From Pseudomonas chlororaphis subsp. aurantiaca (GTDB lineage Bacteria > Pseudomonadota > Gammaproteobacteria > Pseudomonadales > Pseudomonadaceae): a stretch of 64,000 nucleotides of DNA. The translations under genes were made by a program, and so were the position numbers. The notes below the pieces were generated by a model. That model worked only from the letters and a program-made list of their open reading frames with translations. It ran no database searches and had not been told where the DNA came from. Each line of letters begins with the position of its first letter. Position 1 is the first letter of the stretch. Location of the stretch: NCBI RefSeq assembly GCF_013466605.1, contig NZ_CP059162.1:4588001-4652000 (forward strand), read 5' to 3'. This document shows positions 27,322-64,000 of this stretch, piece by piece.

Positions 27322-28221
27322 ATGACCACTGAACCGACTCACCCCGCCACCCCACCACTGGCTCTGAAAAAACTCTGCGCCACCTCCCTGCTCGCGCTGT
27401 TCGGCGGCCTGCTGTGCCAGGGCGCACAAGCCGCCACGCCGCAACCGGGCCAGGTGTTCAAGGACTGCAAGGACTGCCCGGAAATGGTCGTGCTGCCCGC
27501 TGGCACCTTCACCATGGGCACTCCGGACGACGAGGTCGGCCGCGAACCCGACGAAGGCCCGATGCATGACGTGACCTTCGCCAAGCCCTTTGCCATGAGT
27601 CGCTTCCAGATCACCGCCGGCGAATGGGACAGCTACGTCAAGCAGACCGGCGTGGTCATCGCCAATGGCGACACCCGCCCCGGCCGCGAATGCGTCGCCA
27701 GCAAGCCGCGCTACCCGCAAGGCCCGCGTCAGCCGGCGGTGTGCATGGACTTCGCCGACGTGAAGGCCTATGTCGCCTGGCTGTCGAAAAAGACCGGGCA
27801 CAACTATTCGATGGTCAGCGAGGCCCAGCGCGAATACGCCGCCCGCGCCGGTTCCAAGGGGCCCTTCCCGTTTCCGTTCGATGAAGGCAAGGGCTACAGC
27901 ATCGCCAAGCACGCCAACACCTATGGCCCGGCCGATGGCTACAGCTTCAGCTCGCCGGTGGGCAGCTACCCGCCCAATGCCTTCGGCATGTACGACATGC
28001 ACGGCAATGTCTATGAATGGATCGCCGACTGCGAACACGCCAACTATGTGGGCGCGCCTACCGATGGCAGTGCCTGGGTAGAGCCGGGCTGCGAATCGCT
28101 GCAGATCCGTGGCAACGACTGGGGCGAAGCTCCGGTGTTCTCCCGTTCGGGCAATCGCAACAATATCTACCCGAGCACCCGCGGCGACTGGATCGGCTTC
28201 CGAGTGGTACGCGAGCTGTAA
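27322..28221 (+). CDS. pvdO: PvdO, formylglycine-generating-enzyme-like maturation protein
   Basis: This 299-residue periplasmic protein of the FGE-sulfatase fold catalyses the last oxidation, dihydropyoverdine to pyoverdine. A Sec signal (KKLCATSLLALFGGLLCQGAQA) leads into the family motifs MVVLPAGTFTMGTPDDE (near residue 54), MSRFQITAGEWDSYV, FGMYDMHGNVYEWIADC (near 220) and the C-terminal GDWIGFRVVREL. It is the last gene of the pvdMNO operon and faces pvdF, with REP elements between. Confidence 0.94.
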   Translation: MTTEPTHPATPPLALKKLCATSLLALFGGLLCQGAQAATPQPGQVFKDCKDCPEMVVLPAGTFTMGTPDDEVGREPDEGPMHDVTFAKPFAMSRFQITAGEWDSYVKQTGVVIANGDTRPGRECVASKPRYPQGPRQPAVCMDFADVKAYVAWLSKKTGHNYSMVSEAQREYAARAGSKGPFPFPFDEGKGYSIAKHANTYGPADGYSFSSPVGSYPPNAFGMYDMHGNVYEWIADCEHANYVGAPTDGSAWVEPGCESLQIRGNDWGEAPVFSRSGNRNNIYPSTRGDWIGFRVVREL

Positions 28222-33757: not shown

Positions 33758-45634
<11,877 letters not shown>

Positions 45635-48600: not shown

Positions 48601-48870
48601 CCAGCGCGATGTTGAGGGTTGCCTCGGCGCGAATCACCTGCACCGTGCGCTGGCCATCCTGCTGCAGGCGGGTGCGCAGGCTTTCATGGCGCGCCACCAG
48701 GGTGTCGAAGCTGCGCTGCAACGCGGCCTGGCCCAGCCGGCCCTTCAGGCGCAGGGCGCTCGGGATATGGTAGGCGGCGCTCTGCGGCTCCAGCTGCCAG
48801 AGGAACCACTGGCGTTCCTGGGCATAGGACAGCGGCAACGGCAGGTCGCGGCTGACCTTGTGGATCGCCG
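45638..48870 (-). other. Module 4 (C-A-T), predicted fOHOrn
   Basis: The A-domain code is DGEVCGGVT, and the domain differs from module 6 in only about one residue over the region compared by eye. The carrier motif is HFFELGGHSLL. A short acidic tail ends the protein. Confidence 0.83.
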
Positions 48871-51800
48871 GAACCTCGCTGGCCACGTTGCCCAGCGCGT
48901 TGACGAAATCCCCCAGCAGCGGTTGCTCGAACAGGGTCTTCAGCGCGACCTCGATGCCCAGCGCCTGGCGCACCCGCGAAACCACCCGCGTGGCCAGCAG
49001 GGAGTGACCGCCCAGCTCGAAGAAGTGGTCTTCCAGGCCGACCTGCCGGGCGCCCAAGACATCGGCCCAGATCGCCGCGACCTGTTGTTCTTTTTCGCTG
49101 ACCGCCGGCACATGGCGTTTCTGCAACAGGCTGGCGTCCGGTTTTGGCAGGGCCTTGCGGTCCAGCTTGCCGTTCGGCGTCAGCGGCATGCGCTCGAGGA
49201 ACAGCAGGTAGGCCGGCACCATGTAGTCCGGCAACGATTCGCGCAGGGCTGCCTTGAACCGCTCGCGCAGCACCGCCTGATCCGCCTCGGTGGTCGCGTC
49301 GTGGGTCACCAGGTAGGCGACCAGTCGATCGTTCTCGGCCAGCACCGCCGCTTCGCGGACCTCGGCCTGGTCACGCAGGCAGCTTTCGATTTCACCCAGC
49401 TCGATGCGGAAACCACGCACCTTCACCTGATGGTCGACCCGGCCGATGTACTCGACCACGCCATCAGCGCGATAACGCGCCAGATCGCCGGTGCGGTACA
49501 GCCGCTCGCCCGAACCGGCAAACGGATCGGGCACGAAGCGCTCGGCGGTCAGCGCCGCCCGGCCGTGGTAACCACGGGCCAGGCCGACGCCGCCGATCAG
49601 CAGCTCGCCGGCCGCCCCCACCGGGCACGGCGCCAGGTCGGCGCTGAGGATGAATAGCGAGGTATTGGCAATCGGCCGGCCGACAAAGGGCTGGGCGTCG
49701 CACAGACGATAGGCCGCCGACCAGATGGTGGTTTCGGTCGGGCCGTAGAGGTTCCACACCGTGCCTTGCAGGTCGAGCATGCGCTGGGCCAGGTCGTTCG
49801 CCAGCGCCTCGCCGCCGCACAGGCACTTGATGCCGCGCAGCAGGGAACGCCGTTCGCTGTCGAGCAGCATGCGCCAGGTCGAGGGCGTGGCCTGCACCAC
49901 GCTGGCCGCCTGGGCCTGCAGCAGGTCGAGGATCGCTTGCGGGTCCAGCGAAAGCTCCTTGTCGCCCAGCACCACGGTCGCGCCCACGCTCAGCGGTACA
50001 TAGAGTTCCAGGGCGAAGATGTCGAAGGAGAAGGTGGTCAGCGACAGCATCCGCTCGTCACGGCCGATCTCCAGGATAGCGGCCATGCCGCTGGTGAAGC
50101 TGCTCAGCGCCTGATGACGGATCATCACGCCCTTGGGCCTGCCGGTGGAGCCCGAGGTGTAGATCACATACGCCAGATGCTCCGGCGACAGCACCAGGTT
50201 CGGGTTCTCGTCGCTGCACCCGGCTTCGGCAACCGGCCCGTCCACCAGCAGCACCCGCGGGCCGCTCGGCAGTTGCAGGCGCTCGCGCAGACGCTCCTGG
50301 GTCAGCAGCACCTGGGCGCGGCTGTCTTCGAGCATGAAGGCCAGGCGCTCGGCCGGGTATTGCGGATCGAGCGGCACATAGGCGCCGCCGGCCTTGAGGG
50401 TGGCCAGCAGGCCGACCACCATCTCCACCGAACGCTCCAGCGCCACCGCCACCCGCACGTCCGGACCGACCCCGGCGTCCATCAGGCGATGGGCCAGGCG
50501 GTTGGCGCGGCGGTTCAGTTCGGCATAGCTCAGCGACTCGCCGTTGCAGTGCAGGGCAATGGCCTGCGGTTGCGCCAGCACCTGGGCTTCGAACAACTGA
50601 TGCACGCCCCGGTCCTGTGGATAAGCGGTCGCCGTGGCGTTCCACTGATGCACGATCTGCTGCCACTGCGCTTCGCTGAGCAACGGCAGGTCGTCCAGGC
50701 GCGCGCTGGCTTGAGTCGCCACGGCCCGCAGCAGGTTCTGCCAGTGCTGCATCAGGCGTTCCACGGTGGCCGCTTCGAACAGGTCGGTGGCGTAGGTCAA
50801 GGAGGCCCAGAGACCTTCGGCAGTCTCCTGGGTATCCAGGTTGAGGTCGAACTGCGCGGTGTGGCTGTTCCACTGCAAGCCTTCCATCAGCAGGCCGGGC
50901 AGTTGCCGGGCGTTACGCGCGTCGCTCTGATGGTTGAACATCACCTGGAACAGCGGGTTGTGGCTCAGGCTGCGCTCGGGTTGCAGCGCCTCCACCAGTT
51001 GCTCGAACGGCAGGTCCTGATGGCTCTGCGCTTGCAGCGCGCGCTGCCTGACCTGCTGCAACAGCCCGACAAAGGTCATCTGAGCGTCGATATCGGCCTT
51101 GAGCACCTGGGTGTTGACGAAGAAGCCGAGCAGATGTTCGGTTTCCACCCGGTTGCGGTTGGCGATCGGCACGCCGATGCGGATATCCGCCTGGCCGCTG
51201 TAGCGGTACAGCAGGGTCTGGAACGCGGCCAGCAACAGCATGAACATCGTCACGCCTTCGCGCTGGGCCAGGGCCTTGAGCTGCTGCACCAGTTCCGGCT
51301 CCAGCGCCAGATCCAGGCGCGCGCCACGATGGCTCTGCACCGCCGGGCGTGGACGGTCCAGGGGCAATTCCAGCACCGGCTGTTCGCCCCCCAGCAGGGC
51401 CTGCCAGTAATCCAGCTGGCGTGCCTTCTCCCCTGCTTCCATCCAGTTGCGCTGCCACTGTGCGTAGTCGGCGTACTGGATCGGCAGCGCCGGCAATTGC
51501 AGGTCCTGGCCCTCACGGTAAGCGGCGTACAGCTGCACCAGCTCATCGATCATGATCTGCATAGACCAGCCGTCGGAGACGATATGGTGCTGGACCAGCA
51601 CCAGCACATGCTCCTCCGCACCCAAGCGCAGCAGGCTGACCCGCAACAGCGGGCCCTGTTCCAGGTCGAACGGCCGGGCGATTTCCTCGTCCACCAGGCT
51701 TTCCAGCCGGGCTTCGTCGGCATCGGTCAAACGGATCGCGATGGCCCCTTCGGCGTCGATCACCTGCACGGTGCGTTCGCCGTCCTGCAACAGGCGGGTA

Positions 51801-54800
51801 CGCAGACTTTCGTGACGCGCCAGCAGGCTGTCGAAACAGCGCTGCAAGGCGTCCAGGTCCAACCGGCCCTTCAGGCGCAGGGCGCTGGGCACATGGTAGG
51901 CGGCGCTGTCGGGCTCCAGCTGCCAGAGGAACCACTGGCGTTCCTGGGCATAGGACAACGCCAGCGGCTGGCCACGTTCCAGGACCTGCATCGGCGGCGT
52001 GCCGGCCCCTTGCACCTCGGCGCAGGCGGCGGCGAAAGCGCCCAGGGTCGGCTGCTCGAACAAGGTACGCAGCGGCACTTCCAGGTGCAGCTCATGACGG
52101 ACCCGGGAGATGACCTGGGTGGCCATCAGCGAGTGTCCGCCGCGCTCGAAGAAGTGCTCGCCCAGGCCGACAGGCGCGCTTTGCAAGACGTCTTCCCAGA
52201 TCGCCGCGAGCTGGCGCTGCAAACTGGTTTGCGGCGCTTGATAAGCCTCGCCGCCCTGAGCCGGGTCGGGTTTGGGCAGGGCCTTGCGGTCCAGCTTGCC
52301 GTTGTGGTTCAGCGGCAGGCGGTCGAGCAACAGCAAGTGGCTCGGCAGCATGTAGTCCGGCAACGAACGGGCCAGCGCCTGCAACAGTTGCGCGCGATAA
52401 GCGTCCTGCGATGGCAGGGTCGCCAGGGCCGGATCGCTGGCCACCACATACGCCACCAGTTGCGCACCCGCCGGACTGTCCTGGGCGATCACCGCCGCCT
52501 CGCGCACCTGTTCCAGGGCTTGCAGGCAGGCTTCGATCTCGCCCATTTCGATGCGGAAACCGCGAATCTTCACCTGATGGTCGATACGGCCGACGTACTC
52601 CAGGTCCGCGCCGTTGTAACGGGCCAGGTCGCCGCTGCGGTACAGCCGCGCCCCCGGTTCGGCGGCGAAGGGGTCGGGCAGGAAACGCTCGGCGGTCAAG
52701 CCGGGGCGATCGAAATAACGCTGCGCCAGGCCAAACGACGCGCCAATGCACAGCTCACCGACACCACCGGCCGGCAACAGCTGGCCGGCGCTGTCGAGCA
52801 CATAGAGCGCGCGTCCGCCAATGGCCTGGCCGATCGGCACGCCAAAGGCATCGCTGGCGTCTTCCAGGCGGCACTCATGCACGCTGGAGACCACCGTGGC
52901 CTCGGTCGGGCCGTAGGTATTGAGCAGGCGCACATGCCCCAGGCCAGCCTCGTGCCACAGGCGCAGGCCCTCGACGGACATGGCTTCGCCGCCCACATGC
53001 ACCTGGCGCAGGCGGCCCAGGGAACGCTTGGCGTCGATCGCGCACTCGCGGGCCAGCAGGTACCAGTAAGCCGCCGGCAAATCGGCCAGGGTCACGCCAT
53101 GGCGGACCATCTCGTCCGCCAGTTGCCCGACATCCCAAGGCTCGTCGCCACGCATGACCAGGGCCGCGCCGACGCAGAGCGGCGGATAGCACTGCTCGAC
53201 AAAACCGTCGAAGCTCACGGTGGCGAACTGCAGCACCCGGTCCTCGGCCGTCAGCCGCGAATACTCGGCGGCGGTCTGGCAGAACTCGCGCAGCGCGCCG
53301 TGATCGATGGCCACGCCCTTGGGCAGGCCGGTGGAACCTGAGGTGTAGATCACATACGCCAGGTCGCTGGCGGCGGCGCGGTTCTGCGGATCGCTGTCGG
53401 CATACGCCGCCAGCTCAGTGTGCAGATCGTCCAGGCACAACGCTCCCAAGCCCAGTCGCGGCAGCGATGCCGGCAATACCAGATCTTCCAGCAGCCCGGC
53501 TGCGCACAGCAGCAGGTCCAGGCGGCTGTCCTCGATCATGTAGGCCAGGCGTTCGGCCGGGTATTTCGAGTCGAGCGGCACATAGGCCGCGCCGCTTTTG
53601 AGCACCGCCAGCAGGCTGACGATCAATTGCGGGCCTCGGCCCATGGCCAGGCCGACCCGCTGGCCGGGCGCCACGCCCTGCTCCAGCAGGCGGTGCGCCA
53701 GGCGGTTGACCAGGGCATTCAACTGGCCATAGCTCAGCCGCTGGTCGCCGGCTTGCAGCGCCAGCGCGTCCGGGGTGGCGGCGGCCTGCGCGGCAAAACG
53801 CTGGTGCACCAGCTGTTCGCTGTGCAGGTGCAGCACCTGGGGCTGGCTCACGGCGAGGACCGCGGCCTGCCCGGCGCCATCCAGCAGGCGCAGTTCGCCC
53901 AGCGGCGCCTGCGGCAGGGCAACCATCTGCGCCAGCAGGTGCTGGAGGTCGGCGCTCAATTGCGCAACCTGGGCGGCGCTGAAGCGCGCCAGGTCATAGC
54001 TGAACTCCAGGCTCAGCCCGGCGCCGAGCTCGATGCCCAGGGTCAGCGGATAGTGGGTGCGCTCGTGGTTGTGCAACTCACCGAACGCCAGTCCGGCCGG
54101 CGCGCCGCCCTTGAGGGCCTCGGCCACCGGGAAGTTCTCGAATACCAGCAGGCTGTCGAACAGCGCCGTCCCCTGCTGCCCCGCCCAGCCCTGGATGTCG
54201 TAGAGCGGTATATGTTCGTACTCGCGCATGCTCAGGTTGAGGTTCTGCAGCGCGGCCAGCCACTGGTTCAGCGGCTGGTCCGGCGCCGCCGCGCAGACCA
54301 GCGGCAGAGTGTTGATGAACAGCCCCAGTTGCTGCTCGATACCCGGCAAGGCCGCCGAACGCCCGGCCACCGTGGCGCCGAAGACCACGCAATCCTGCCC
54401 GGTATAGCGTTGCAGCAGCAGGCCCCAGGCCGCTTGCACCAGGGTGTTGAGGGTGACCTTGTGCTGCCGGGCGAAGTCCGCCAGCCGCTGGGTCGCGGCT
54501 GCGTCCAGCGCCACCCGATACTCGGCGCTGCCGCTGCCGTCGACCGGCGGACGCAAGGCCTCGGCCAGCAATGTCGGGGTTTGCAGCGGGGCCAGCGCGG
54601 CCTTCCAGAACCGTTCGCCGGCAGCGCTCGACTGCTGCTGCAACCAGCCCAGGTAGTCACTGTACTGACTCAAGGGCTGGCCCAGCGGCTGGCCCGGGGC
54701 CTGTCCGGCATAGTCCTGGATCACTTCGGCGAGCAGCTGCGCGTTGCTCCAGCCGTCCATCAGGATGTGGTGGCTGGTGTAGATCAGGTGCCAGGCATCG

Positions 54801-57800
54801 TCGCCGCGGCGGACCAGTTGCAGGCGCAGCAGCGGCGCGCCGCTCAGTTCGAAACCACGCTTGCGCTCGGCGCTCGCCAGGGCCTCGAGGTCCGCGGCGG
54901 CCTCCTCGATGACCTGCCATTGCAGCTCGACCTGACGGTGCACCACCTGGTGCGCGACCTCCAGCCCCAGCCAGTGGAAGCTGCTGCGCAGGATCGCGTG
55001 GCGGTTCAGCGCGGCTTGCCAGGCGCGAGCGAAGGCCTGGAGATCCAGGCCGCGGATATCCAGGCGCAGCTGATTGATATAGGCCTCGGCCTGGGGCTCG
55101 TACAGGGTGTGGAACAGCATGCCCTGCTGCATCGGCGACAGCGGATAGAGGTCTTCGATGGCGCTGCTGTCCGGCGCCAGCACATCCAGCTGAGCCTGGC
55201 CGATGGTCGCCAGCGGGAAGTCCGACGGCGTGGCCTGGCCGGCCGGGACCGCGCAGCAATGGGCGATCAGCGCCTTGAGTTCCAAGACATAGGCGTCGGC
55301 CAGGCGCTGCACGGTGGCGTCCTCGAACATCTCGCGGCTGAAGCCCCATTGCAGCGCCAGCTCGCCACCGTAGACCTGCCCTTCCAGGGTCAGCCAGTTG
55401 GCCAGCGGCGCATCCGGGTCCTGGGCGCGGCCGCTGCTTTCCACGGCGGGGACCAGCAGCGCCGTGTCGTCGAACTGACGGTCGAACTGCCCCAGGTAGT
55501 TGAAGGTGATGCGCGGCGCCGGCAGGGCCCGCAGCAGCTCGCGACTGCCCGGCTCGCCCAGGTAGCGCAGCAGGCCGTAGCCCAGGCCTTTGCCCGGCAC
55601 GGCGCGCAGTTGTTCCTTGATCGCCTTGATCGCGCTCGCCAGTTCGTCCTGGGGCTGCAGGCGGACCGGGAACAGGCTGGTGAACCAGCCGACGGTGCGG
55701 CTCAGGTCGAGGTCGGCGGACAGTTCTTCGCGACCGTGGCCTTCGAGTTGGATCAGCGCCGCGTCCTGCCCGCTCCAGCGGCAGAGCACACGGGCCAGCG
55801 CGGTCAGCAGCAGGTCGTTGACCTGGGTGCGATAGGCCGCCGGCGCGCTTTGCAGCAGTTGCCGGGTCAGCTCGCTGTCCAGCCGCGATTCGATCTTGCG
55901 CTCCAGGCGATTGTGCAGGCCGCCTTGCGGGTTATCGCACGGCAGGTCGAGCCCGGCCTGTTGCTGCGCCTGCCAGTAAGGCAGTTGAGCCTCCAGTTGT
56001 CGGGCATGGCTTTGCAGCTGCTCGGCCCAGGCCTGGTAGGCGCTGGTCTTGGCCGGCAAGGCCACTGCGCTACCCGCCGCCAGCTGGCCGTAGGCGCGCT
56101 GCAGGTCCTCGAGCACGATGCGCCAGGACACACCGTCCACCACCAGGTGGTGGATGACCAGCAACAGGCGCTGGCTGCCATCGGCCAGATCCACCAGCGC
56201 GGCCCGCAACAGCGGCCCCTGCTGCAGGTTCAGGCTGCGCTGGGCCTCGTCGCAGAGCACAGCCAGGGCTTCGGTGTTTTCAGCCTGGCACTGCCACAGG
56301 CCGCTCTCCCCGAGCGGTGCGGCGTGGCTTTGCTGCCAGCCGTCGGCGCCCTGGACAAAACGCAGGCGCAGGGCATCGTGATGATTGAGCACTGCCGTCA
56401 GCGCGCCTTCCAGCCACCGCGCTTGCAGCTTCTGGCGCGGGGTCAGGAGCAGCGACTGGTTCCAGTGGCCAGGTTGGGCAATCGCCTGCTCGAAGAAATA
56501 CTCCTGGGCCGGGGTCAGGATCGCCTCGCCGCTGACCGGGCCCTGGTCGATCACGCTCGGGCTCTCGAACACCGCCGCCAGCGCCAGGCTGCGCACCGTC
56601 TGGTACTGGAACAGGTCCCGCGGGCTGAGGCGGATGCCGGCCTGGCGGGCGCGGCTGACCACCTGGATCGAGATGATCGAATCGCCGCCCAGTTCGAAGA
56701 AGTTGTCTTCCAGGCCGACCTGCTCCAGGCCCAGGACGTCGCACCAGATCGCCGCCAGGGCTTTCTGCGTGGCGTCCTCGGGAGCGATGAAGGCGTGCTG
56801 CGCTGTGGCTTCGGGCAGCGGCAACGCCTTGCGATCGAGCTTGCCGTTGGTGGTGACCGGCAGTTTCGCCAAGGGCATCAGGTAAACCGGCACCATGTAT
56901 TCCGGCAGGCTGCCCAGCAGCCACGCCTTGAGCTCTTGCTGCCAGGTGGCGGCCGGCTCGGCGTCCTCCAACACCAGATAACCCACCAGTTGCTTGCCGC
57001 CCTGCACCAGCACCGCGGCTTCGCGCACCAGCGGGTGCTGCATCAGGCGGGTCTCGATTTCGCCCAGCTCGATGCGCAGCCCGCGCAACTTGACCTGGTG
57101 ATCGAGGCGGCCGAGGTATTCGATGACCCCGTCGGCGCGCTGGCGCACCCGGTCGCCAGTGCGATACAGGCGCGTGCCAGCCTCGAACGGGCTGGTGACG
57201 AAACGCTCGGCCGTCAGCCCCGGACGGCGATGGTAACTGCGGGCCAGGCCGGCGCCGCCCAGGTACAGCTCGCCGGCGACACCGGCTGGCACCGGCGACA
57301 GCTCGGCGTCCAGCACATAGGTGCGCAGGTTGGCGATCGGACGGCCGATCGGCACGCCAAGGGCGCCCTCGTCGACACAGGTCCAGTGGGTCACGTCGAT
57401 GGCCGCTTCCGTCGGCCCATAGAGGTTGTACAGCGCGGCGTCCGGCAGCTTGGCGAACACCTGCTGCTGGGCGTCCAGGGGCAAGGCTTCGCCGCTGCAG
57501 ACAATGCGCTTGAGGCTGGCGCAGGCCCGTACGCCCGGCTCGTGGATGAACGCCTGGAGCATCGACGGCACAAAATGCAGGGTGCTGATGCCGTGCTTGA
57601 CGATGGTCTCGATCAACAGCGCCGGCTCGCGATGGGCGCCCGGCGCAGCCACCACCAGGCGCGCGCCGGTCAGCAGCGGCCAGAAGAATTCCCAGACCGA
57701 CACGTCGAAGCTGAACGGGGTCTTTTGCAGCACCGCGTCGCTGCCGTTGAGCCCATAGGCGTCCTGCATCCAGCACAGGCGGTTGACCAGCGCGGCATGG

Positions 57801-59824
57801 CTGTTGCCGGCGCCCTTGGGCTTGCCGGTGGAACCGGAGGTGTAGATCACGTAGGCCAGGTTCAGCGGCCCGCCGGCCAGGGCCAGCGGGGCTTCGCTGT
57901 AGCCGTCCAGCCAGTCCTGGTCCTGATCGAGGATCATGACCTTGAGCGCCTCGGTCGGCAGCACCGGCAGCAACGCGCTTTGCGTGAGCAACAGGGCGAT
58001 GCCGCTGTCTTCGATCATGTAGGCCAGGCGGTCCAGCGGGTATTCCGGGTCCAGCGGCACATAGGCGCCACCGGCCTTGAGGATCGCCAGCAGGCCGACC
58101 ACCATTTCGATCGAGCGCTCGACACAGATGCCCACCAGCACGTCCGGGCCCACACCCTGCTCGCGCAGCAGGTGCGCCAGCTGGTTGGCGCGGGCGTCGA
58201 GCTGGGCGTAGCTCAGTTCACGCTCGGCGAACACCAGGGCCGGCGCATGCGGCGTACGCCGCACCTGCTCTTCGATCAACTGGTGAAGGCAGCGCTCGAC
58301 CGGGTAGCGGGCCTCGGTCTGGTTCCACTCCAGCAGCAGTTGCTGCCGTTCGGCGGCGGCCAGCATCGGCAGCTCGCCGACCCGCTGCGCGGTATCGGCG
58401 ACCATCGCCTGCAACAGGCGGGTCCAGTGTTGCGCCATGCGCTCGATGGTGGCGGCGTCGAACAGGTCGTTGGCGTAGGTCAGCGCGGCCTGCAGCTTGC
58501 CGGCCTTCTCGAAGGTGTCCAGGGTGAGGTCGAACTGGGTGGTGCGGCTTTGCCACTCCACCAGGCCCAGCTCCAGGCCCGAGGCGGTGCTGACCGCGCT
58601 GATGTCGGCGACCTGCGGCTGATGGTTGTACATCACCTGGAACAGCGGGGTATGGCTCAGGCTGCGCTCCAGCTTGAGCGCCTCCACCAGTTGCTCGAAC
58701 GGCAGGTCCTGATGGGCCTGGGCGCCGAGGGCCGCTTCCTTGACCTGTTGCAGCAACTGGCTGACCGGCGTCTGCCCGTTCAGCCGGGTACGCAGCACCT
58801 GGGTGTTGACGAAGAACCCGATCAGCCCTTCGACTTCCGCGCGGTTGCGGTTGGCGATCGGCACGCCGACGCGGATGTCGTCCTGCCCGGTGTAGCGATG
58901 CAGCAGCACGTTGAAGGCCCCGAGCAACAGCATGAACAGCGTCACGTTGTGCTGCCTGGCGGTGGCGCGCAACTGCGCGGCCAGGGCCGGCTCGATGGCG
59001 AAGTCATAGCGGGTGCCGCGATAGCTGGGCATCGCCGGGCGCGGATGGTCGGTGGGCAACTCCAGCACCGGGTGCTCGTCGCCCAGTTGTGCCTGCCAAT
59101 ACTCCAGTTGCCGCGCCTGCTCGCCGGCTTCCAGCCAGCGGCGCTGCCACAGGGCGTAGTCGCTGTACTGGATCGGCAAGGCCGGCAGTTGCGGCGCTTG
59201 CTGCCGCTCATGGGCGTCGTAGAAACGGATGAATTCGTCGATCAGCACATTCATCGACCAGCCGTCGGAAACGATGTGGTGCAAGGTCAACAGCAGCACA
59301 TGTTCCTCGTCCGCCAGCTTCAGCAGCTTGACCCGCAGCAGCGGCCCGCTGCCCAGGTCGAACGGTTGCAGCGACTGGCGCTGCGCCTGGTCCGCGACCG
59401 CCTGCTCGCGCGCGTCGGGCGCCAGGGCGCTCAGGTCCACCGACTCCACGGGCACCGCGGTCTCGACCGCCACTTGCTCCAGGCGCTCGTCGGCATGGCG
59501 CTTGAACACCGTGCGCAGAGTCTCGTGGCGCGCCACCAGGCTGGCGAACGCCTGCTCCAGGGCCGGCAGGTTCAGGGCGCCACGCAGGCGCACCGCGCCC
59601 GGCAGGTTATAGGCGCCGCTGTGTGGGTCCATCTGCCAGAGGAACCACATCCGTCGCTGGGCATAGGACAGCGCCTGGCGATCCTCGGCGGCGATCCCGG
59701 CGGGAATCGGAAACAACGAAAAGTCGATGTTTTCCGCCCGCAGACCATCGAGGAACAACCGCCGCTTTTCCAGCGGCAGCTCGATAAATCGACTGGCGAG
59801 TTTCAGGGACTTTTCAGCATTCAT
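45638..59824 (-). CDS. pvdI: Pyoverdine peptide synthetase, modules 1-4 (PvdI-like)
   Basis: This 4728-residue NRPS has the order C-A-T-E, C-A-T, C-A-T, C-A-T with no thioesterase. The specificity codes are DVWHVSLID (Ser), DGEDHGTVV (Lys), DILQLGLIW (Gly) and DGEVCGGVT (fOHOrn). The epimerase in module 1 (HHLVVDGVSWR near residue 1228) predicts D-Ser. The first C domain (MNAEKSLKLASRF start, HHIVSDGWS) should accept the acyl-Glu-Tyr-Dab chain from PvdL, which is encoded elsewhere. The C-terminus (SAADFDDLRDFLSELEAI) looks like a docking tail for the next synthetase. A TAATT-type PvdS box lies 56 bases upstream. The symbol follows the P. aeruginosa four-module PvdI. Confidence 0.94.
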   Translation of the reverse strand: MNAEKSLKLASRFIELPLEKRRLFLDGLRAENIDFSLFPIPAGIAAEDRQALSYAQRRMWFLWQMDPHSGAYNLPGAVRLRGALNLPALEQAFASLVARHETLRTVFKRHADERLEQVAVETAVPVESVDLSALAPDAREQAVADQAQRQSLQPFDLGSGPLLRVKLLKLADEEHVLLLTLHHIVSDGWSMNVLIDEFIRFYDAHERQQAPQLPALPIQYSDYALWQRRWLEAGEQARQLEYWQAQLGDEHPVLELPTDHPRPAMPSYRGTRYDFAIEPALAAQLRATARQHNVTLFMLLLGAFNVLLHRYTGQDDIRVGVPIANRNRAEVEGLIGFFVNTQVLRTRLNGQTPVSQLLQQVKEAALGAQAHQDLPFEQLVEALKLERSLSHTPLFQVMYNHQPQVADISAVSTASGLELGLVEWQSRTTQFDLTLDTFEKAGKLQAALTYANDLFDAATIERMAQHWTRLLQAMVADTAQRVGELPMLAAAERQQLLLEWNQTEARYPVERCLHQLIEEQVRRTPHAPALVFAERELSYAQLDARANQLAHLLREQGVGPDVLVGICVERSIEMVVGLLAILKAGGAYVPLDPEYPLDRLAYMIEDSGIALLLTQSALLPVLPTEALKVMILDQDQDWLDGYSEAPLALAGGPLNLAYVIYTSGSTGKPKGAGNSHAALVNRLCWMQDAYGLNGSDAVLQKTPFSFDVSVWEFFWPLLTGARLVVAAPGAHREPALLIETIVKHGISTLHFVPSMLQAFIHEPGVRACASLKRIVCSGEALPLDAQQQVFAKLPDAALYNLYGPTEAAIDVTHWTCVDEGALGVPIGRPIANLRTYVLDAELSPVPAGVAGELYLGGAGLARSYHRRPGLTAERFVTSPFEAGTRLYRTGDRVRQRADGVIEYLGRLDHQVKLRGLRIELGEIETRLMQHPLVREAAVLVQGGKQLVGYLVLEDAEPAATWQQELKAWLLGSLPEYMVPVYLMPLAKLPVTTNGKLDRKALPLPEATAQHAFIAPEDATQKALAAIWCDVLGLEQVGLEDNFFELGGDSIISIQVVSRARQAGIRLSPRDLFQYQTVRSLALAAVFESPSVIDQGPVSGEAILTPAQEYFFEQAIAQPGHWNQSLLLTPRQKLQARWLEGALTAVLNHHDALRLRFVQGADGWQQSHAAPLGESGLWQCQAENTEALAVLCDEAQRSLNLQQGPLLRAALVDLADGSQRLLLVIHHLVVDGVSWRIVLEDLQRAYGQLAAGSAVALPAKTSAYQAWAEQLQSHARQLEAQLPYWQAQQQAGLDLPCDNPQGGLHNRLERKIESRLDSELTRQLLQSAPAAYRTQVNDLLLTALARVLCRWSGQDAALIQLEGHGREELSADLDLSRTVGWFTSLFPVRLQPQDELASAIKAIKEQLRAVPGKGLGYGLLRYLGEPGSRELLRALPAPRITFNYLGQFDRQFDDTALLVPAVESSGRAQDPDAPLANWLTLEGQVYGGELALQWGFSREMFEDATVQRLADAYVLELKALIAHCCAVPAGQATPSDFPLATIGQAQLDVLAPDSSAIEDLYPLSPMQQGMLFHTLYEPQAEAYINQLRLDIRGLDLQAFARAWQAALNRHAILRSSFHWLGLEVAHQVVHRQVELQWQVIEEAAADLEALASAERKRGFELSGAPLLRLQLVRRGDDAWHLIYTSHHILMDGWSNAQLLAEVIQDYAGQAPGQPLGQPLSQYSDYLGWLQQQSSAAGERFWKAALAPLQTPTLLAEALRPPVDGSGSAEYRVALDAAATQRLADFARQHKVTLNTLVQAAWGLLLQRYTGQDCVVFGATVAGRSAALPGIEQQLGLFINTLPLVCAAAPDQPLNQWLAALQNLNLSMREYEHIPLYDIQGWAGQQGTALFDSLLVFENFPVAEALKGGAPAGLAFGELHNHERTHYPLTLGIELGAGLSLEFSYDLARFSAAQVAQLSADLQHLLAQMVALPQAPLGELRLLDGAGQAAVLAVSQPQVLHLHSEQLVHQRFAAQAAATPDALALQAGDQRLSYGQLNALVNRLAHRLLEQGVAPGQRVGLAMGRGPQLIVSLLAVLKSGAAYVPLDSKYPAERLAYMIEDSRLDLLLCAAGLLEDLVLPASLPRLGLGALCLDDLHTELAAYADSDPQNRAAASDLAYVIYTSGSTGLPKGVAIDHGALREFCQTAAEYSRLTAEDRVLQFATVSFDGFVEQCYPPLCVGAALVMRGDEPWDVGQLADEMVRHGVTLADLPAAYWYLLARECAIDAKRSLGRLRQVHVGGEAMSVEGLRLWHEAGLGHVRLLNTYGPTEATVVSSVHECRLEDASDAFGVPIGQAIGGRALYVLDSAGQLLPAGGVGELCIGASFGLAQRYFDRPGLTAERFLPDPFAAEPGARLYRSGDLARYNGADLEYVGRIDHQVKIRGFRIEMGEIEACLQALEQVREAAVIAQDSPAGAQLVAYVVASDPALATLPSQDAYRAQLLQALARSLPDYMLPSHLLLLDRLPLNHNGKLDRKALPKPDPAQGGEAYQAPQTSLQRQLAAIWEDVLQSAPVGLGEHFFERGGHSLMATQVISRVRHELHLEVPLRTLFEQPTLGAFAAACAEVQGAGTPPMQVLERGQPLALSYAQERQWFLWQLEPDSAAYHVPSALRLKGRLDLDALQRCFDSLLARHESLRTRLLQDGERTVQVIDAEGAIAIRLTDADEARLESLVDEEIARPFDLEQGPLLRVSLLRLGAEEHVLVLVQHHIVSDGWSMQIMIDELVQLYAAYREGQDLQLPALPIQYADYAQWQRNWMEAGEKARQLDYWQALLGGEQPVLELPLDRPRPAVQSHRGARLDLALEPELVQQLKALAQREGVTMFMLLLAAFQTLLYRYSGQADIRIGVPIANRNRVETEHLLGFFVNTQVLKADIDAQMTFVGLLQQVRQRALQAQSHQDLPFEQLVEALQPERSLSHNPLFQVMFNHQSDARNARQLPGLLMEGLQWNSHTAQFDLNLDTQETAEGLWASLTYATDLFEAATVERLMQHWQNLLRAVATQASARLDDLPLLSEAQWQQIVHQWNATATAYPQDRGVHQLFEAQVLAQPQAIALHCNGESLSYAELNRRANRLAHRLMDAGVGPDVRVAVALERSVEMVVGLLATLKAGGAYVPLDPQYPAERLAFMLEDSRAQVLLTQERLRERLQLPSGPRVLLVDGPVAEAGCSDENPNLVLSPEHLAYVIYTSGSTGRPKGVMIRHQALSSFTSGMAAILEIGRDERMLSLTTFSFDIFALELYVPLSVGATVVLGDKELSLDPQAILDLLQAQAASVVQATPSTWRMLLDSERRSLLRGIKCLCGGEALANDLAQRMLDLQGTVWNLYGPTETTIWSAAYRLCDAQPFVGRPIANTSLFILSADLAPCPVGAAGELLIGGVGLARGYHGRAALTAERFVPDPFAGSGERLYRTGDLARYRADGVVEYIGRVDHQVKVRGFRIELGEIESCLRDQAEVREAAVLAENDRLVAYLVTHDATTEADQAVLRERFKAALRESLPDYMVPAYLLFLERMPLTPNGKLDRKALPKPDASLLQKRHVPAVSEKEQQVAAIWADVLGARQVGLEDHFFELGGHSLLATRVVSRVRQALGIEVALKTLFEQPLLGDFVNALGNVASEVPAIHKVSRDLPLPLSYAQERQWFLWQLEPQSAAYHIPSALRLKGRLGQAALQRSFDTLVARHESLRTRLQQDGQRTVQVIRAEATLNIALATTDEASLKARVVEEITRPFDLQLGPLLRVKLLRLAEDEHVLVLVQHHIVSDGWSMQIMVDELVQLYGAYSQGQDLHLPALPIQYADYAIWQRQWMEAGEKERQLDYWMGQLGGEQPVLELPFDHPRPAIQSHRGARLDLRLDAQLLADLQTLAQGEGVTLFMLLLASFQALLHRYSGQEDIRVGVPIANRNRVETERLIGFFVNTQVLKADIDGQMTVAQLLQQVKQRALEAQAHQDLPFEQLVEALQPERSLSLSPLFQVMFNHRVTSADSQLQSMAQLDIEVVTWDEGVAQFDLALDIEEAPAELRASLSYATDLFEAATIERMARHWQNLLQGMVADRQQSVAQVVLLDDSEQQQILALWDRTDSGFSAKRLVHELVADRARENPEAVAVIFGDQQLSYGELERSANRLARALMARGVGPEVRVAIAMPRSAEIMVAFLAVLKAGGVYVPLDVEYPRDRLLYMMQDSRAKLLLTHTAVSQQLPIPDGLDSLAVDRIQDWAGEDDSAPNVALDGDNLAYVIYTSGSTGMPKGVAVSHGPLVAHIIATGERYEMTPADCELHFMSFAFDGSHEGWMHPLINGARVLIRDDSLWLPEHTYAQMHRHGVTVGVFPPVYLQQLAEHAERDGNPPAVRVYCFGGDAVAQSSYDLAWRALRPTYLFNGYGPTETVVTPLLWKARKGDPCGAAYAPIGELLGNRSGYVLDAQLNLQPIGVAGELYLGGEGVARGYLERPALTAERFVPDPFGAPGSRVYRSGDLTRGRPDGVVDYLGRVDHQVKIRGFRIELGEIEARLREQDSVREAVVVAQAGPSGKQLVGYIVTLDPTVAADVAAQATCREALRRALKARLPDYMVPAHLMFLESMPLTPNGKLDRKGLPLPDASLLQQEYVAPQSELEQQIAAIWAEVLGLPRVGLNDHFFELGGHSLLATQITSRVHAELGLEVPLAALFHTESLQAYAQAAGDCRSGSAADFDDLRDFLSELEAI
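45914..47527 (-). repeat. Near-identical duplicate of module-6 A domain (copy in module 4)
   Basis: This is the partner of 39353-40966 (offset 6561). The same offset resumes in the upstream condensation-domain segment around 47831-48135, with a divergent stretch between. Confidence 0.85.
48871..51995 (-). other. Module 3 (C-A-T), predicted Gly
   Basis: The A-domain code DILQLGLIW (from FDIFALEL, VVQATPSTW, CLCGGEAL, WNLYGPTETTIW) is the well-known Gly code. The carrier is HFFELGGHSLL. Confidence 0.88.
51996..55230 (-). other. Module 2 (C-A-T), predicted Lys
   Basis: The condensation domain follows an epimerase and carries HHILMDGW. The A code is DGEDHGTVV (Lys). The carrier motif reads FFERGGHSLM, with Arg in place of the usual Leu. 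Confidence 0.8.
55231..59824 (-). other. Module 1 (C-A-T-E), predicted D-Ser
   Basis: The A-domain code DVWHVSLID (from FDVSVWEF, TLHFVPSM, RIVCSGEA, YNLYGPTEAAID) is a Ser code. The carrier is FFELGGDSII and the epimerase domain follows with HHLVVDGVSW and FNYLGQFD. Confidence 0.87.
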
Positions 59825-59940: not shown

Positions 59941-59964
59941 TAAATTCCACGGATGGCGACTCGT
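59941..59964 (+). promoter_or_regulatory. PvdS-type IS box for the siderophore-interacting protein gene
   Basis: Plus strand TAAAT, 16 bases, CGT; exact match, ending 38 bases before ATG 60003. It is divergent from the synthetase box. Confidence 0.85.
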
Positions 59965-60002
59965 CAAAAGAGGACCATCACTTTCCACACAAGGTCGCGA
60001 TC

Positions 60003-61913: not shown

Positions 61914-61937
61914 TAAATTTCCCGCCACAGCCTTCGT
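61914..61937 (+). promoter_or_regulatory. PvdS-type IS box for the SCP2-JmjC gene
   Basis: Plus strand TAAAT, 16 bases, CGT; exact match, ending 39 bases before GTG 61977. It is divergent from the pvdG box. Confidence 0.85.
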
Positions 61938-61976
61938 TCCCTGTTGCAGATCAAACCGCAAACAAGAGAGATCGCC

Positions 61977-63110
61977 GTGGACTTGCAGACCATTCTGTCA
62001 AAGCTGTTCGCCAATGCCGGTGCCGTGGGAATCGAAGGCACCTTTCAGTTCGTGTTCGGTCCACAGCTGGCATTCTGGTCAGAGGTCAAGGCACACAGCC
62101 GGACCGAAGCCGGCCGGCATCCGGCGCCTGATGTCACCATCGAGGTCGCCCAGGCCGACTTTCTCGGGATCATGGGCGGCAGCGCCAACGTCGAGGAACT
62201 GTTCGCCAGCGGGCGCCTGAAAATCGGCGGCAACATGGGCCTGGCGACGCTGCTGCCGCAGATCATCGACCATGCCCGACATGGCGGCGCAGTGGAAAAG
62301 AAAGTCGAGATGAACACCCGCTACCCCACCCCGCCGCGCTACAGCGAGCAAGTCTCGGCCGGCCTGCCGACCCAGCGCACGGTGGAGCGGCGCCCGCGCA
62401 GCGGGCTGTCGGTAGAGGAGTTCAAGACGCGCTACCTGCCCCAGGGCATTCCCGTGGTGATCAGCGATGCCCTGCAGGACTGGCCGCTGTTCAAGCTCAG
62501 CCGCGAAGAATCGCTGGTGCATTTCGCCGAGCTGCAAGGCATCACCCGCCACGGCGACTACGTGAAAAAGACCTTTTCCACCGAGCGCGACTTCCGCTCC
62601 ACCTCCATGGCCGGGTTCATCGCCGCGCTGGACAACCCCGCAGCAAAAAGCGCCGACGGCGAACCGCCCGCCTATATGGGCAACAACATCCTGCCGGCGC
62701 AGTTGCTGGAGCAGATCCAGTACCCGCCCTACTTCGACCGCTCGCTGTTCATCCCGCCGCGGATCTGGATCGGCCCCAAGGGCACCCTGACTCCGCTGCA
62801 CCGCGACGACACCGATAACCTGTTCGCCCAGGTCTGGGGGCAGAAGTCCTTCATCCTCGCCGCGCCCCACCACCGTGAGGCCCTGGGCACCTGGTCGACC
62901 GCCCCCGAGGGCGGGCTCGACGGCTGCGAGGTCAACCCGGACGCGCCGGACTACGAGCGTTTTCCGGCCTCGCGGGACGTGACCTTCCTGCGCCTCACCC
63001 TGGAAGCCGGCGACCTGCTGTTCCTGCCCGAGGGCTGGTTCCACCAGGTGGAGTCGGTGTCCACCTCGCTCTCGGTGAATTTCTGGGTCAACTCCGGGCG
63101 CGGCTGGTAA
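61977..63110 (+). CDS. SCP2-like plus JmjC/cupin_8 protein, probable Fe(II)/2-oxoglutarate oxygenase
   Basis: This 377-residue protein has two domains. Residues about 1-105 resemble an SCP2 sterol-carrier fold (GIEGTFQFVFG, ADFLGIMGGSANVEELFASG). Residues about 135-377 are a JmjC/cupin_8 domain like that of FIH and TYW5. The metal triad is visible as His275-Arg-Asp277 in TPLHRDDTDNLF and His356 in EGWFHQVES, so an iron/2-oxoglutarate hydroxylase is likely. The start GTG 61977 has AAGAGAG 7 bases upstream; a TTG at 61944 is the alternative. An exact PvdS box precedes it, so it belongs to the pyoverdine regulon. Its substrate is unknown. The predicted peptide contains no hydroxy-Asp or hydroxy-His to explain it. 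Confidence 0.82.
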   Translation: MDLQTILSKLFANAGAVGIEGTFQFVFGPQLAFWSEVKAHSRTEAGRHPAPDVTIEVAQADFLGIMGGSANVEELFASGRLKIGGNMGLATLLPQIIDHARHGGAVEKKVEMNTRYPTPPRYSEQVSAGLPTQRTVERRPRSGLSVEEFKTRYLPQGIPVVISDALQDWPLFKLSREESLVHFAELQGITRHGDYVKKTFSTERDFRSTSMAGFIAALDNPAAKSADGEPPAYMGNNILPAQLLEQIQYPPYFDRSLFIPPRIWIGPKGTLTPLHRDDTDNLFAQVWGQKSFILAAPHHREALGTWSTAPEGGLDGCEVNPDAPDYERFPASRDVTFLRLTLEAGDLLFLPEGWFHQVESVSTSLSVNFWVNSGRGW

Positions 63111-63113
63111 GGC

Positions 63114-64000
63114 TCAGGCGACCGCCGGCTGGCCGCGGGTCAGTCGGCGACAGCTCTGTACCGCCGCCCCCAGCACCACCACTCCCGCCGCCTGCGCCAC
63201 CCAGAAGCCGCTGCGTGCGCCAAAGGCATCCACCAGCCAGCCGGAACTGGCCGCGCCGATGGCCACGCCGATGCTGACCCCGGTGACCAGCCAGGTCAGG
63301 CCCTCGGTAAGCTTGGCCGGCGGCACGATGTTTTCCACCAGGGCCATGGCGACGATCAGGGTCGGGGCGAAGAACAGGCCGGAGACGAACACCGCCAGGG
63401 ACAGGCCGAAGATATTGCTCGCCAGCAGCAATGGCAGGGTGGTCACGGCGGTGGCGATGCCGCCGTACATGAACAGTCGCGGCAGCGGGATATTCAGTTT
63501 CAGCGCACCAAAGGCGATACCCGCCAGGCAGGAACCGATGGCGTACACCGACAGCACGATGCTCGCCGCCGCGGGTTGCCCCTGCTGCTGGGCGAACGCC
63601 ACGCTGACCACGTCCACCACACCGACGATCATGCCCATGGCGATCATCAGCAGCACCAGCAACTGCAACTCCAGCGAGCGGATGATCGACGCGTCGTGCC
63701 CGGCCTCATGGGGGTGCACCGGCGGCTCGGTCGCCCGTTGCGCTACCAGCGCGGTGACGCCAATCGCCAGCATCAGCAGCGCCGCCAGCGGCCCGGCCTC
63801 GGGGAAGGCCGCCACGCACAGCCCCACCGACAACGGCGGGCCGACGATAAAGCACACCTCATCGAGCACCGATTCCAGGGCGTAGGCGGTCTGCAACTGT
63901 GGCTGGCCGCGGTACAGTTCGGTCCAGCGGGCGCGGATCATCGCCGGTATGCTCGGCATGCAGCCGGCCAGGGCGGCGAACAGGAACAGCGTCCAGTGCG
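63114..64000 (-). CDS. MFS transporter, 5' end outside window
   Basis: The frame is open from the right edge of the window to a stop at 63114, giving at least 295 residues of a major facilitator transporter. The visible part begins within an early helix (HWTLFLFAALAGCMPSIPAM), followed by IRARWTELYRG, a loop motif common in a clade of small-molecule exporters. Eight or more hydrophobic segments follow, ending in a basic tail. An internal ATG at 63959 would start mid-helix and is unlikely to be real. It converges with the JmjC gene, with only 3 bases between stops. The substrate is unknown, and a siderophore link is possible only by position. Confidence 0.8.
   Translation of the reverse strand, partial: HWTLFLFAALAGCMPSIPAMIRARWTELYRGQPQLQTAYALESVLDEVCFIVGPPLSVGLCVAAFPEAGPLAALLMLAIGVTALVAQRATEPPVHPHEAGHDASIIRSLELQLLVLLMIAMGMIVGVVDVVSVAFAQQQGQPAAASIVLSVYAIGSCLAGIAFGALKLNIPLPRLFMYGGIATAVTTLPLLLASNIFGLSLAVFVSGLFFAPTLIVAMALVENIVPPAKLTEGLTWLVTGVSIGVAIGAASSGWLVDAFGARSGFWVAQAAGVVVLGAAVQSCRRLTRGQPAVA

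What the first reader, a model, noticed from the sequence alone, without database searches (positions are those of the whole stretch)
61914..63110. An SCP2-JmjC oxygenase-like protein in the PvdS regulon
An exact PvdS box sits 39 bases before a gene coding for a lipid-carrier-like SCP2 domain fused to a JmjC/cupin domain with an intact His275-Asp277-His356 metal triad. The classical pyoverdine pathway assigns no step to such a protein, and the predicted peptide has no beta-hydroxylated residue. The SCP2 half could hold an acyl chain, and acylated ferribactin is the pathway's cytoplasmic intermediate, so hydroxylation of the acyl precursor, of a synthetase or of a ribosomal/tRNA target under iron starvation are testable ideas.
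Basis: partly seen in the sequence, partly recalled or inferred. Interest (0 to 1): 0.78.

Follow-up and report, generated by a model that had tools for sequence, protein, structure and literature searches.

The report
Likely missing hydroxylase for pyoverdine malamide
A bacterial iron-scavenging gene set contains an unstudied two-part enzyme that may add the oxygen found in one variant of the siderophore pyoverdine, a step whose enzyme reviews call unknown.

Summary
Window 61977-63110 (+) encodes a 377-aa SCP2-Cupin_8/JmjC protein ("CUP"). An exact PvdS box lies 39 bp upstream; such a box precedes 73 of 80 named homologues. The iron triad and 2-oxoglutarate residues are invariant apart from one truncated row.

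CUP belongs to pyoverdine synthesis: 33 of 149 Pseudomonas genomes have it, all among the 109 with PvdL at 60% identity or more, none of the other 40. It is not always beside pvdG (22 of 33); elsewhere it lies by pvdN or pvdP.

Best reading, unproved: CUP is the unidentified hydroxylase behind malamide/malic side chains. It would act on acylated Glu1 of ferribactin in the cytoplasm, SCP2 holding the acyl chain, PvdN finishing the malamide. P. fulva NBRC 16637 carries CUP and shows malamide masses. The only one of 398 genomes with a P. putida GB-1 primer site also carries CUP; GB-1 makes malamide and azotobactin.

Strain matches are few; +16 ions occur in 11 of 13 tabulated strains, so they discriminate poorly.

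The parts
61914..61937 (+). PvdS (iron-starvation) box TAAAT-N16-CGT of the CUP gene
   Evidence: a box (spacer 15-17) lies 31-91 bp upstream in 73 of 80 named homologue loci
61977..63110 (+). CUP: SCP2 domain (residues 44-97) fused to Cupin_8/JmjC Fe(II)/2OG oxygenase domain (148-370), GTG start, 377 aa
61064..61813 (-). PvdG-like type II thioesterase, divergent neighbour
   Evidence: Pfam Thioesterase 1.6e-48; best of 12 thioesterase matches in the genome
60003..60986 (+). SIP: siderophore-interacting protein (FAD-binding_9 and SIP domains); tandem partner of CUP in several genomes; start at 60003 inferred from the ORF and the box spacing
59941..59964 (+). PvdS box ahead of the SIP gene
63114..63998 (-). 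MFS transporter-like gene (runs off the window); bounds CUP on its other side here and in relatives
45638..59824 (-). pyoverdine NRPS 1, codes Ser-Lys-Gly-Orn
33758..45634 (-). pyoverdine NRPS 2, codes Lys-Orn-Ser, terminal thioesterase
25977..27269 (+). PvdN-like protein with twin-arginine N-terminus; named by place between PvdM- and PvdO-like genes, no family scan succeeded (one search failed)
27322..28221 (+). PvdO-like (FGE-sulfatase domain)
22753..24378 (-). PvdP-like, twin-arginine N-terminus (named by size, place and box; no Pfam match)

Best explanation
CUP is a cytoplasmic Fe(II)/2-oxoglutarate hydroxylase of the pyoverdine pathway. Its SCP2 half cradles the myristoyl chain that PvdL puts on the amino group of Glu1. 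Its JmjC half hydroxylates that Glu1, most likely at C3, the position that JMJD5/FIH-type enzymes favour on residues (recalled). After export by PvdE and deacylation by PvdQ, PvdN converts hydroxy-Glu to malamide as it converts Glu to succinamide; malic acid is the hydrolysis product. CUP would thus be the enzyme called unknown in the literature. Shown: gene, box, conservation, active-site residues, restriction to pvdL-bearing genomes, position among pvd genes, presence in P. fulva NBRC 16637. Inferred: substrate, position, order of steps, role of SCP2.
For: (1) PMC6206403 says an unknown enzyme makes malamide in some species, not found in PAO1 or A506, and that ferribactin is acylated on the amino group of its first residue, Glu. 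(2) P. fulva NBRC 16637 carries CUP (L194) and shows 1204.56 and 1220.55, the masses I compute for succinamide and malamide; the paper speaks of a malic acid amide type for it. MS/MS on strain 16639 (CUP not tested there) gives a peptide, Asp-Ser-Ser-AcOHOrn-Lys-Lys-cOHOrn, with no beta-hydroxy residue; the paper calls the same sequence likely in 16637. The 16637 genome (G138) has 2 TauD matches, both on contig C32, not on the CUP (C12), pvdN (C26) or pvdL (C44) contigs. (3) P. putida GB-1 makes malic acid amide and azotobactin. The GB-1 primer glmS-F matches exactly in 1 of 398 genomes, G592; glmS-R also matches there, about 334 bp away. (4) One genome, Pseudomonas sp. LB-090624 (G078 = L061 = L199), has pvdM-pvdN-CUP with 73 bp between pvdN and CUP and no box of CUP's own. 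In G072, G141, G057 and G592 CUP follows pvdM-pvdN at about 1.2 kb, in WCS358 (L192) it follows pvdN at that distance. (5) CUP in 33 of 109 PvdL+ and 0 of 40 other genomes, p 9.7e-6, not corrected for relatedness. (6) The N-terminus of CUP shows no twin-arginine or long hydrophobic stretch by eye, while PvdN and PvdP show twin arginines, so CUP should act before export. (7) JMJD5 is the best solved relative by sequence (3.1e-23) and fold (6.5e-18).
Against: Only one strain with malamide-type masses is itself shown to carry CUP; GB-1 rests on a relative picked by primer sites. In the 13 strains of the P. fulva paper's mass table that I entered, 11 show a +16 pair; computed malamide or malic masses for the printed peptides also fit NBRC 12996, 14796, 15366 and 109349, whose CUP status is unknown. 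P. putida NBRC 14671 carries CUP (L197) and has 1342.58/1358.58, but given those 11 of 13 this is weak. P. putida NBRC 14164 has 1336.52/1352.52 although no record of that name is among the 80 CUP loci shown of 92; oxygen elsewhere in the peptide could explain it. In L060 an esterase-like gene on the other strand lies between pvdN and CUP, so an operon with pvdN is supported in one genome only. G026 and G145 carry CUP without a PvdN match at E 1e-60. The review notes that hydroxylated Glu was never found and prefers succinamide as substrate. No side-chain data were found for the window's species. CUP absence in PAO1, A506, SBW25 and KT2440 was not tested on those strains.
Confidence: 0.5

Rival explanations
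1. CUP serves azotobactin ring formation: it oxidises the acyl side chain so that the side chain is expelled and its carbonyl stays as the extra ring; malamide is only a by-product.
For: In A. vinelandii CA CUP lies just downstream of pvdP (L201); that this species makes azotobactin is recalled (PMC4019867 refers to azotobactin work on it). P. fulva and GB-1 co-produce azotobactin-type forms with malamide. Azotobactin equals malamide pyoverdine minus C3H7NO2 in both: 1131.51 computed, 1131.50 reported; 1161.48 computed, 1161.53 reported. G145 has CUP beside pvdM and pvdP and no PvdN match.
Against: PMC4019867 calls azotobactin frequently co-produced with pyoverdine, perhaps also without CUP; no azotobactin data were found for most carriers; the C-C cleavage step is hypothetical.
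Confidence: 0.2
2. CUP hydroxylates a residue of the peptide chain (as SyrP/TauD-type enzymes do for beta-OH-Asp) on the synthetase.
For: JmjC-type relatives hydroxylate residues in polypeptides (recalled); CUP lies near NRPS genes in many genomes.
Against: The P. fulva peptide (MS/MS in strain 16639) has no C-hydroxylated residue. The window's NRPS code is the peptide reported for SBW25, without one. G145 has a TauD gene inside its pvd region, so that job has another enzyme there.
Confidence: 0.1
3. CUP hydroxylates the fatty acyl chain of acyl-ferribactin.
For: SCP2 domains bind lipids (recalled); the acyl chain is present only until periplasmic deacylation.
Against: PvdQ removes the chain, so the change would be lost from the product; the top solved relatives of the JmjC half act on proteins or tRNA (names).
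Confidence: 0.08
4. CUP is a regulatory protein, ribosome or tRNA hydroxylase of the iron-starvation response.
For: Closest solved relatives are JMJD5, FIH, JMJD7 and TYW5.
Against: Found only in pvdL-bearing genomes (33 of 109 against 0 of 40), no full-length match in 275 other Gammaproteobacteria sampled, and present or absent by itself between pvdG and the MFS gene.
Confidence: 0.08

Closest known systems
JMJD5 (KDM8) and the FIH/JMJD7/TYW5 group of JmjC hydroxylases
   Same: Cupin_8 double-stranded beta-helix; iron triad and lysine aligned; best sequence (3.1e-23) and fold (6.5e-18) match
   Different: 23-27% identity in the fold alignments; fused to SCP2; bacterial siderophore locus
SCP-2 sterol carrier / UbiT-type lipid-binding domain
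   Same: Pfam SCP2 above cut-off at 44-97; solved SCP-2 chains match at 1e-8
   Different: fused to an oxygenase; the UbiT model matches below its cut-off
SyrP/TauD-type Asp hydroxylases of pyoverdine clusters
   Same: Fe(II)/2OG hydroxylation in a siderophore pathway
   Different: other family (TauD, PF02668); in G145 both a TauD gene and CUP lie in the pvd region
PvdN and PtaA, the known side-chain tailoring enzymes of pyoverdine
   Same: act on the Glu1-derived side chain; pvdN is a near neighbour of CUP in six genomes seen
   Different: PLP enzymes exported to the periplasm; CUP shows no export signal and is an oxygenase by family

Membership tests
JmjC/Cupin_8 Fe(II)/2-oxoglutarate oxygenases | HxD...H iron triad | tested here: met
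   H275, D277 in 81 of 81 rows, H356 in 80 of 81 (one truncated copy); aligned with JMJD5
JmjC/Cupin_8 Fe(II)/2-oxoglutarate oxygenases | 2-oxoglutarate-binding residues (T272, N281, K290, N368; roles recalled from FIH) | tested here: met
   T272, N281, K290 in 81 of 81, N368 in 80 of 81
JmjC/Cupin_8 Fe(II)/2-oxoglutarate oxygenases | double-stranded beta-helix fold | tested here: met
   AlphaFold2 model, mean pLDDT 77.4; 694 PDB matches at E <= 0.001, JMJD5 first
JmjC/Cupin_8 Fe(II)/2-oxoglutarate oxygenases | 2OG-dependent turnover | not testable with these tools
   needs purified protein
JMJD5 orthologues | same domain architecture | tested here: not met
   N-terminal SCP2 domain; JMJD5's own N-terminal part recalled to be different
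SCP2 domain proteins | SCP2 profile above cut-off | tested here: met
   37.5 bits against 21.3
SCP2 domain proteins | acyl/lipid binding | not testable with these tools
   needs binding assay
PvdS regulon | conserved PvdS box at promoter distance | tested here: met
   73 of 80 named loci. Of the 7 without, L181, L199, L200 and L202 follow SIP, pvdN or pvdP on the same strand (matched ends 59-259 bp away); L168, L171, L184 do not or were not checked
PvdS regulon | PvdS- and iron-dependent expression | not testable with these tools
   the passages seen of the Pf-5 iron study name no such gene
TauD-type siderophore hydroxylases | TauD domain | tested here: not met
   no PF02668 match in the protein; none of 6 genome TauD matches lies here
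Malamide-forming enzyme of pyoverdine | presence matches malamide/malic side chains strain by strain | tested here: inconclusive
   for: P. fulva 16637, relative of GB-1; weak: P. putida 14671; open or against: NBRC 14164 and other +16 strains

The most novel reading that the evidence does not exclude
CUP is one gate to both unexplained side-chain fates of pyoverdines. It makes 3-hydroxy-Glu1 while SCP2 holds the acyl tail. With PvdN the product becomes malamide. If the 3-OH is oxidised, or cut by a PLP retro-aldol, the resulting beta-dicarbonyl amide is attacked by the chromophore nitrogen, the side chain leaves as an enolate and its carbonyl remains as the azotobactin ring. Azotobacter, with CUP beside pvdP, would run mainly the second branch.
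Probability: 0.22. Interest if true: 0.85.

Novelty: new variant of a known kind. Interest (0 to 1): 0.7.

Why it matters
Reviews of 2018 and 2022 state that the enzyme behind malamide/malate pyoverdines is unknown. This offers one gene to delete, a mass shift to look for, and a possible reason for the acyl chain beyond anchoring: a handle by which an SCP2 domain presents Glu1 to an oxygenase. It would be a new use of the JmjC fold (a lipidated siderophore precursor) and a new fusion. It might also open a route into azotobactin, for whose extra ring no enzyme was named in the passages read here. It would let side-chain type be predicted from genomes.

Tried and rejected
Considered and dropped: (a) CUP as marker of one peptide: the window's NRPS code equals the peptide reported for SBW25/ATCC 13525, while P. 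fulva, another carrier, makes a different peptide. (b) Another enzyme in CUP's place where CUP is missing: of 22 CUP-minus genomes with window-type pvdG, 8 were fetched; in 7 the matched ends of pvdG and the MFS gene lie 61-163 bp apart, the eighth shows no MFS match. (c) PvdN co-occurrence as a sharp test: 31 of 33 carriers have PvdN, but 95 of 149 genomes do (57% identity or more), so only nearness informs. (e) Papers whose passages gave no malamide evidence. (f) The genome-wide box count: 45 against 49 in the reversed control. Novelty searches (10 of 10 used) listed no paper tying a cupin, JmjC or SCP2 protein to pyoverdine side chains; only listings were seen for papers not named above, only open-licence PMC papers are held, and subscription papers could hold it.

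Full report
OBSERVATION. The window is 64 kb of a 6.95 Mb genome, close to Pseudomonas chlororaphis by this protein (97% to a P. chlororaphis MAG protein; 94% to strain PCL1601). It spans much of a pyoverdine locus: an L-ornithine 5-monooxygenase (PvdA) at 15698-17032, PvdRT-OpmQ-like export genes, a PvdO-like protein, a formyltransferase (PvdF-like), an ABC protein (PvdE-like), PvdP-, PvdM-, PvdN- and FpvA-like genes named only by size, place or box, and two NRPSs. The finding's gene runs from GTG 61977 to 63110. SCP2, Cupin_8 and JmjC_2 are above Pfam cut-offs. The box at 61914-61937 is exact, 39 bases ahead of the GTG.

IS THE BOX MORE THAN CHANCE? In the window yes: 7 found, 0.59 expected. 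Genome-wide the exact N16 pattern is no more frequent than its reversed control (45 against 49), so comparison is what counts. Of 33 CUP neighbourhoods (L032-L064, window included) 29 have TAAA[T/A]-N15-17-CGT upstream (L065 and L066 hold no full CUP and are left out). Of 80 named loci 73 have TAAAT-N15-17-CGT 20-130 bp upstream, 43 of them at 36-37 bp; those loci hold 79 exact N16 boxes in 659,038 bases summed over both strands. The two sets share genomes.

DISTRIBUTION. In 149 Pseudomonas genomes 33 carry CUP over most of its length (recounted; G034 and G102 are in two pieces, i.e. broken or mis-assembled; G139 has remnants and is not counted). PvdL, the first 600 aa at 60% identity or more, is in 109; 17 more have only weaker matches. 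All 33 are among the 109, none among the other 40 (Fisher p 9.7e-6; related species are not independent). Of 276 Gammaproteobacteria, G000 included, only G000 has the full-length protein; 21 others match in part. Azotobacter vinelandii and a record titled Pantoea sp. Ap-967 also carry it. The genome has one Cupin_8 gene, this one.

GENE ORDER. Window-type pvdG (75-100% identity) occurs in 44 genomes, 22 of them CUP-bearing, and there CUP lies within about 2 kb of it; in 15 of the 22 the order is pvdG-CUP-MFS. In 7 of 8 CUP-minus neighbourhoods fetched (of 22 such genomes), pvdG and MFS lie 61-163 bp apart. The other 11 carriers have other pvdG types elsewhere. Near pvdN: in G078 (L061 = L199) pvdM-pvdN-CUP with 73 bp between pvdN and CUP; in G072 (L056 = L188), G141 (L058), G057 (L060) and G592 (= L189) CUP follows pvdM-pvdN at about 1.2 kb on the same strand, and in WCS358 (L192) it follows pvdN at that distance. 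In L060 an esterase-like gene on the other strand fills that gap; the other gaps were not read. Near pvdP: A. vinelandii CA (L201), P. lopnurensis (L202) and P. carbonaria (L200) read pvdP-CUP on one strand; G145 has CUP between pvdM and pvdP. P. fulva (L057 = L194) and P. putida NBRC 14671 (L197) have CUP between an NRPS and SIP. SIP is in tandem with CUP in eight genomes seen (L050, L051, L054, L057, L059, L061, L197, G592) and near it in the window.

THE PROTEIN. Across 81 copies T272, H275, D277, N281 and K290 never vary; H356 and N368 miss only in one truncated copy. A profile of 17 members finds JMJD5 first among solved structures (3.1e-23) and SCP-2 at 1e-8. The AlphaFold2 model (mean pLDDT 77.4, below 50 at 109-114, 188-209, 224-238, 309-313) matches JMJD5 best (6.5e-18). 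The printed N-termini show twin arginines in PvdN and PvdP and none in CUP (by eye, no predictor run). A tree of 31 copies puts the window with P. chlororaphis PCL1601, and WCS358 with P. hunanensis and P. inefficax; 14 of 28 inner branches are well supported.

WHAT IT LIKELY DOES. The review PMC6206403 (outline, section 9 and passages) says that ferribactin is acylated on the amino group of its first residue, Glu; that PvdN makes succinamide and PtaA ketoglutarate from it; and that an unknown enzyme makes malamide in some species, absent in PAO1 and A506, the OH position being unresolved. A 2022 review repeats that the step is unknown (PMC9569983, passage). A cytoplasmic, PvdS-driven oxygenase with a lipid-holding domain is what one would expect if the step happens on acylated Glu1 before export.

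STRAIN-LEVEL TESTS. The P. fulva paper (PMC12195549; passages and section 16) did MS/MS on strain 16639 and gives for 16637 similar masses with a 'malic acid amide type' ion. Computed: succinamide 1204.56, succinate 1205.54, malamide 1220.55, imide 1187.53, malamide minus C3H7NO2 1131.51. Reported for 16637: 1115.47, 1187.53, 1204.56, 1220.55, 1238.56; for 16639 also 1131.50. The paper's text calls the 1220.56 ion malic acid (Mala) and names 1205.54 the succinamide form; by mass and by its own B1 formulae 1220.56 is the amide and 1204.57 the succinamide. So the extra oxygen of that molecule sits in the side chain. P. putida GB-1 (PMC4019867; outline and passages) makes malic acid amide (1250.57) and azotobactin (1161.53). 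Its primer glmS-F matches in 1 of 398 genomes, G592, glmS-R matches about 334 bp away, and the CUP contig of G592 is the P. hunanensis xwS6 contig of L189 (504,305 bases). G592 was then found to carry CUP. It could have failed (33 of 149 species carry CUP), though P. putida-group species may carry it more often.

RESULTS THAT DO NOT HELP. Of 13 strains entered from that paper's Table 4 (its P. cremoricolorata strain was not in the passage seen), 11 show a pair 16.00 apart, NBRC 16636 and 100650 do not. Computed malamide or malic masses fit NBRC 12996, 14796, 15366 and 109349 too; CUP was not tested in them. NBRC 14671 carries CUP (L197) and has 1342.58/1358.58, unassigned in print. NBRC 14164 has 1336.52/1352.52, and no record so titled is among the 80 loci shown of 92. 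Hydroxy-Asp or other changes could give +16. NBRC 100650 (KT2440, recalled) shows none; its CUP status was not tested. SBW25, with the window's peptide, is reported with succinic or ketoglutaric side chains (PMC2235872, passage); its CUP status was not tested.

STEP ORDER. The review prefers succinamide as substrate because hydroxylated Glu has not been seen. CUP shows no export signal and PvdN does, so if CUP is the enzyme the OH goes on before PvdN acts. G026 and G145 carry CUP without a PvdN match at E 1e-60; there the product must have another fate.

AZOTOBACTIN. P. fulva and GB-1 co-produce it, and A. vinelandii, a carrier with pvdP-CUP order, is the namesake producer (recalled). The relation malamide minus C3H7NO2 holds in both strains, but malamide is not shown to be the precursor. 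A beta-carbonyl derived from 3-hydroxy-Glu would be a good leaving group for ring closure; this is inference.

VERDICT. Membership in the Cupin_8/JmjC superfamily and the SCP2 family is met by sequence and model; activity is untested.

Noticed in passing
window 59941-60986: A siderophore-interacting protein (SIP) gene with its own exact PvdS box lies next to pvdG and CUP and is in tandem with CUP, in either order, in eight genomes seen. In Pf-5 the siderophore-interacting protein PFL_4096 rises under iron limitation (log2 1.17; passage of PMC3377617). It may feed electrons or Fe(II) to CUP.
   Followed up: partly
G139:C72:45286-45535 (L066), G034:C1:3008553-3009622 (L063), G102:C144:40234-41363 (L055): Remnant or split CUP copies at the usual place near window-type pvdG, suggesting recent losses or assembly errors. 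Only described.
   Followed up: partly
genus-wide: PvdG matches fall mainly into three identity classes: 75-100% (peptide NRPS locus), 64-69% (elsewhere), 53-59% (beside pvdL in those compared, e.g. G048, G059). These may be separate lineages.
   Followed up: no
L060:7765-8754 (-): An alpha/beta-hydrolase (esterase-like, by eye) gene between pvdN and CUP on the opposite strand; not scanned.
   Followed up: no
G000:C1:4759277-4759300: Another exact PvdS-like box about 1.5 kb upstream of pvdL (pvdL start near 4757822); gene not identified.
   Followed up: no
G100:C22:199370-200023 (L065): A distant Cupin_8 relative (36% over residues 151-374) in a genome without a PvdL match at E 1e-80, in a 550-aa frame.
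   Followed up: no
G138:C32:74537-75835 and G088:C1:231067-232365: A second, 41-42% identical PvdN-like gene in P. fulva-type genomes, function unknown.
   Followed up: no
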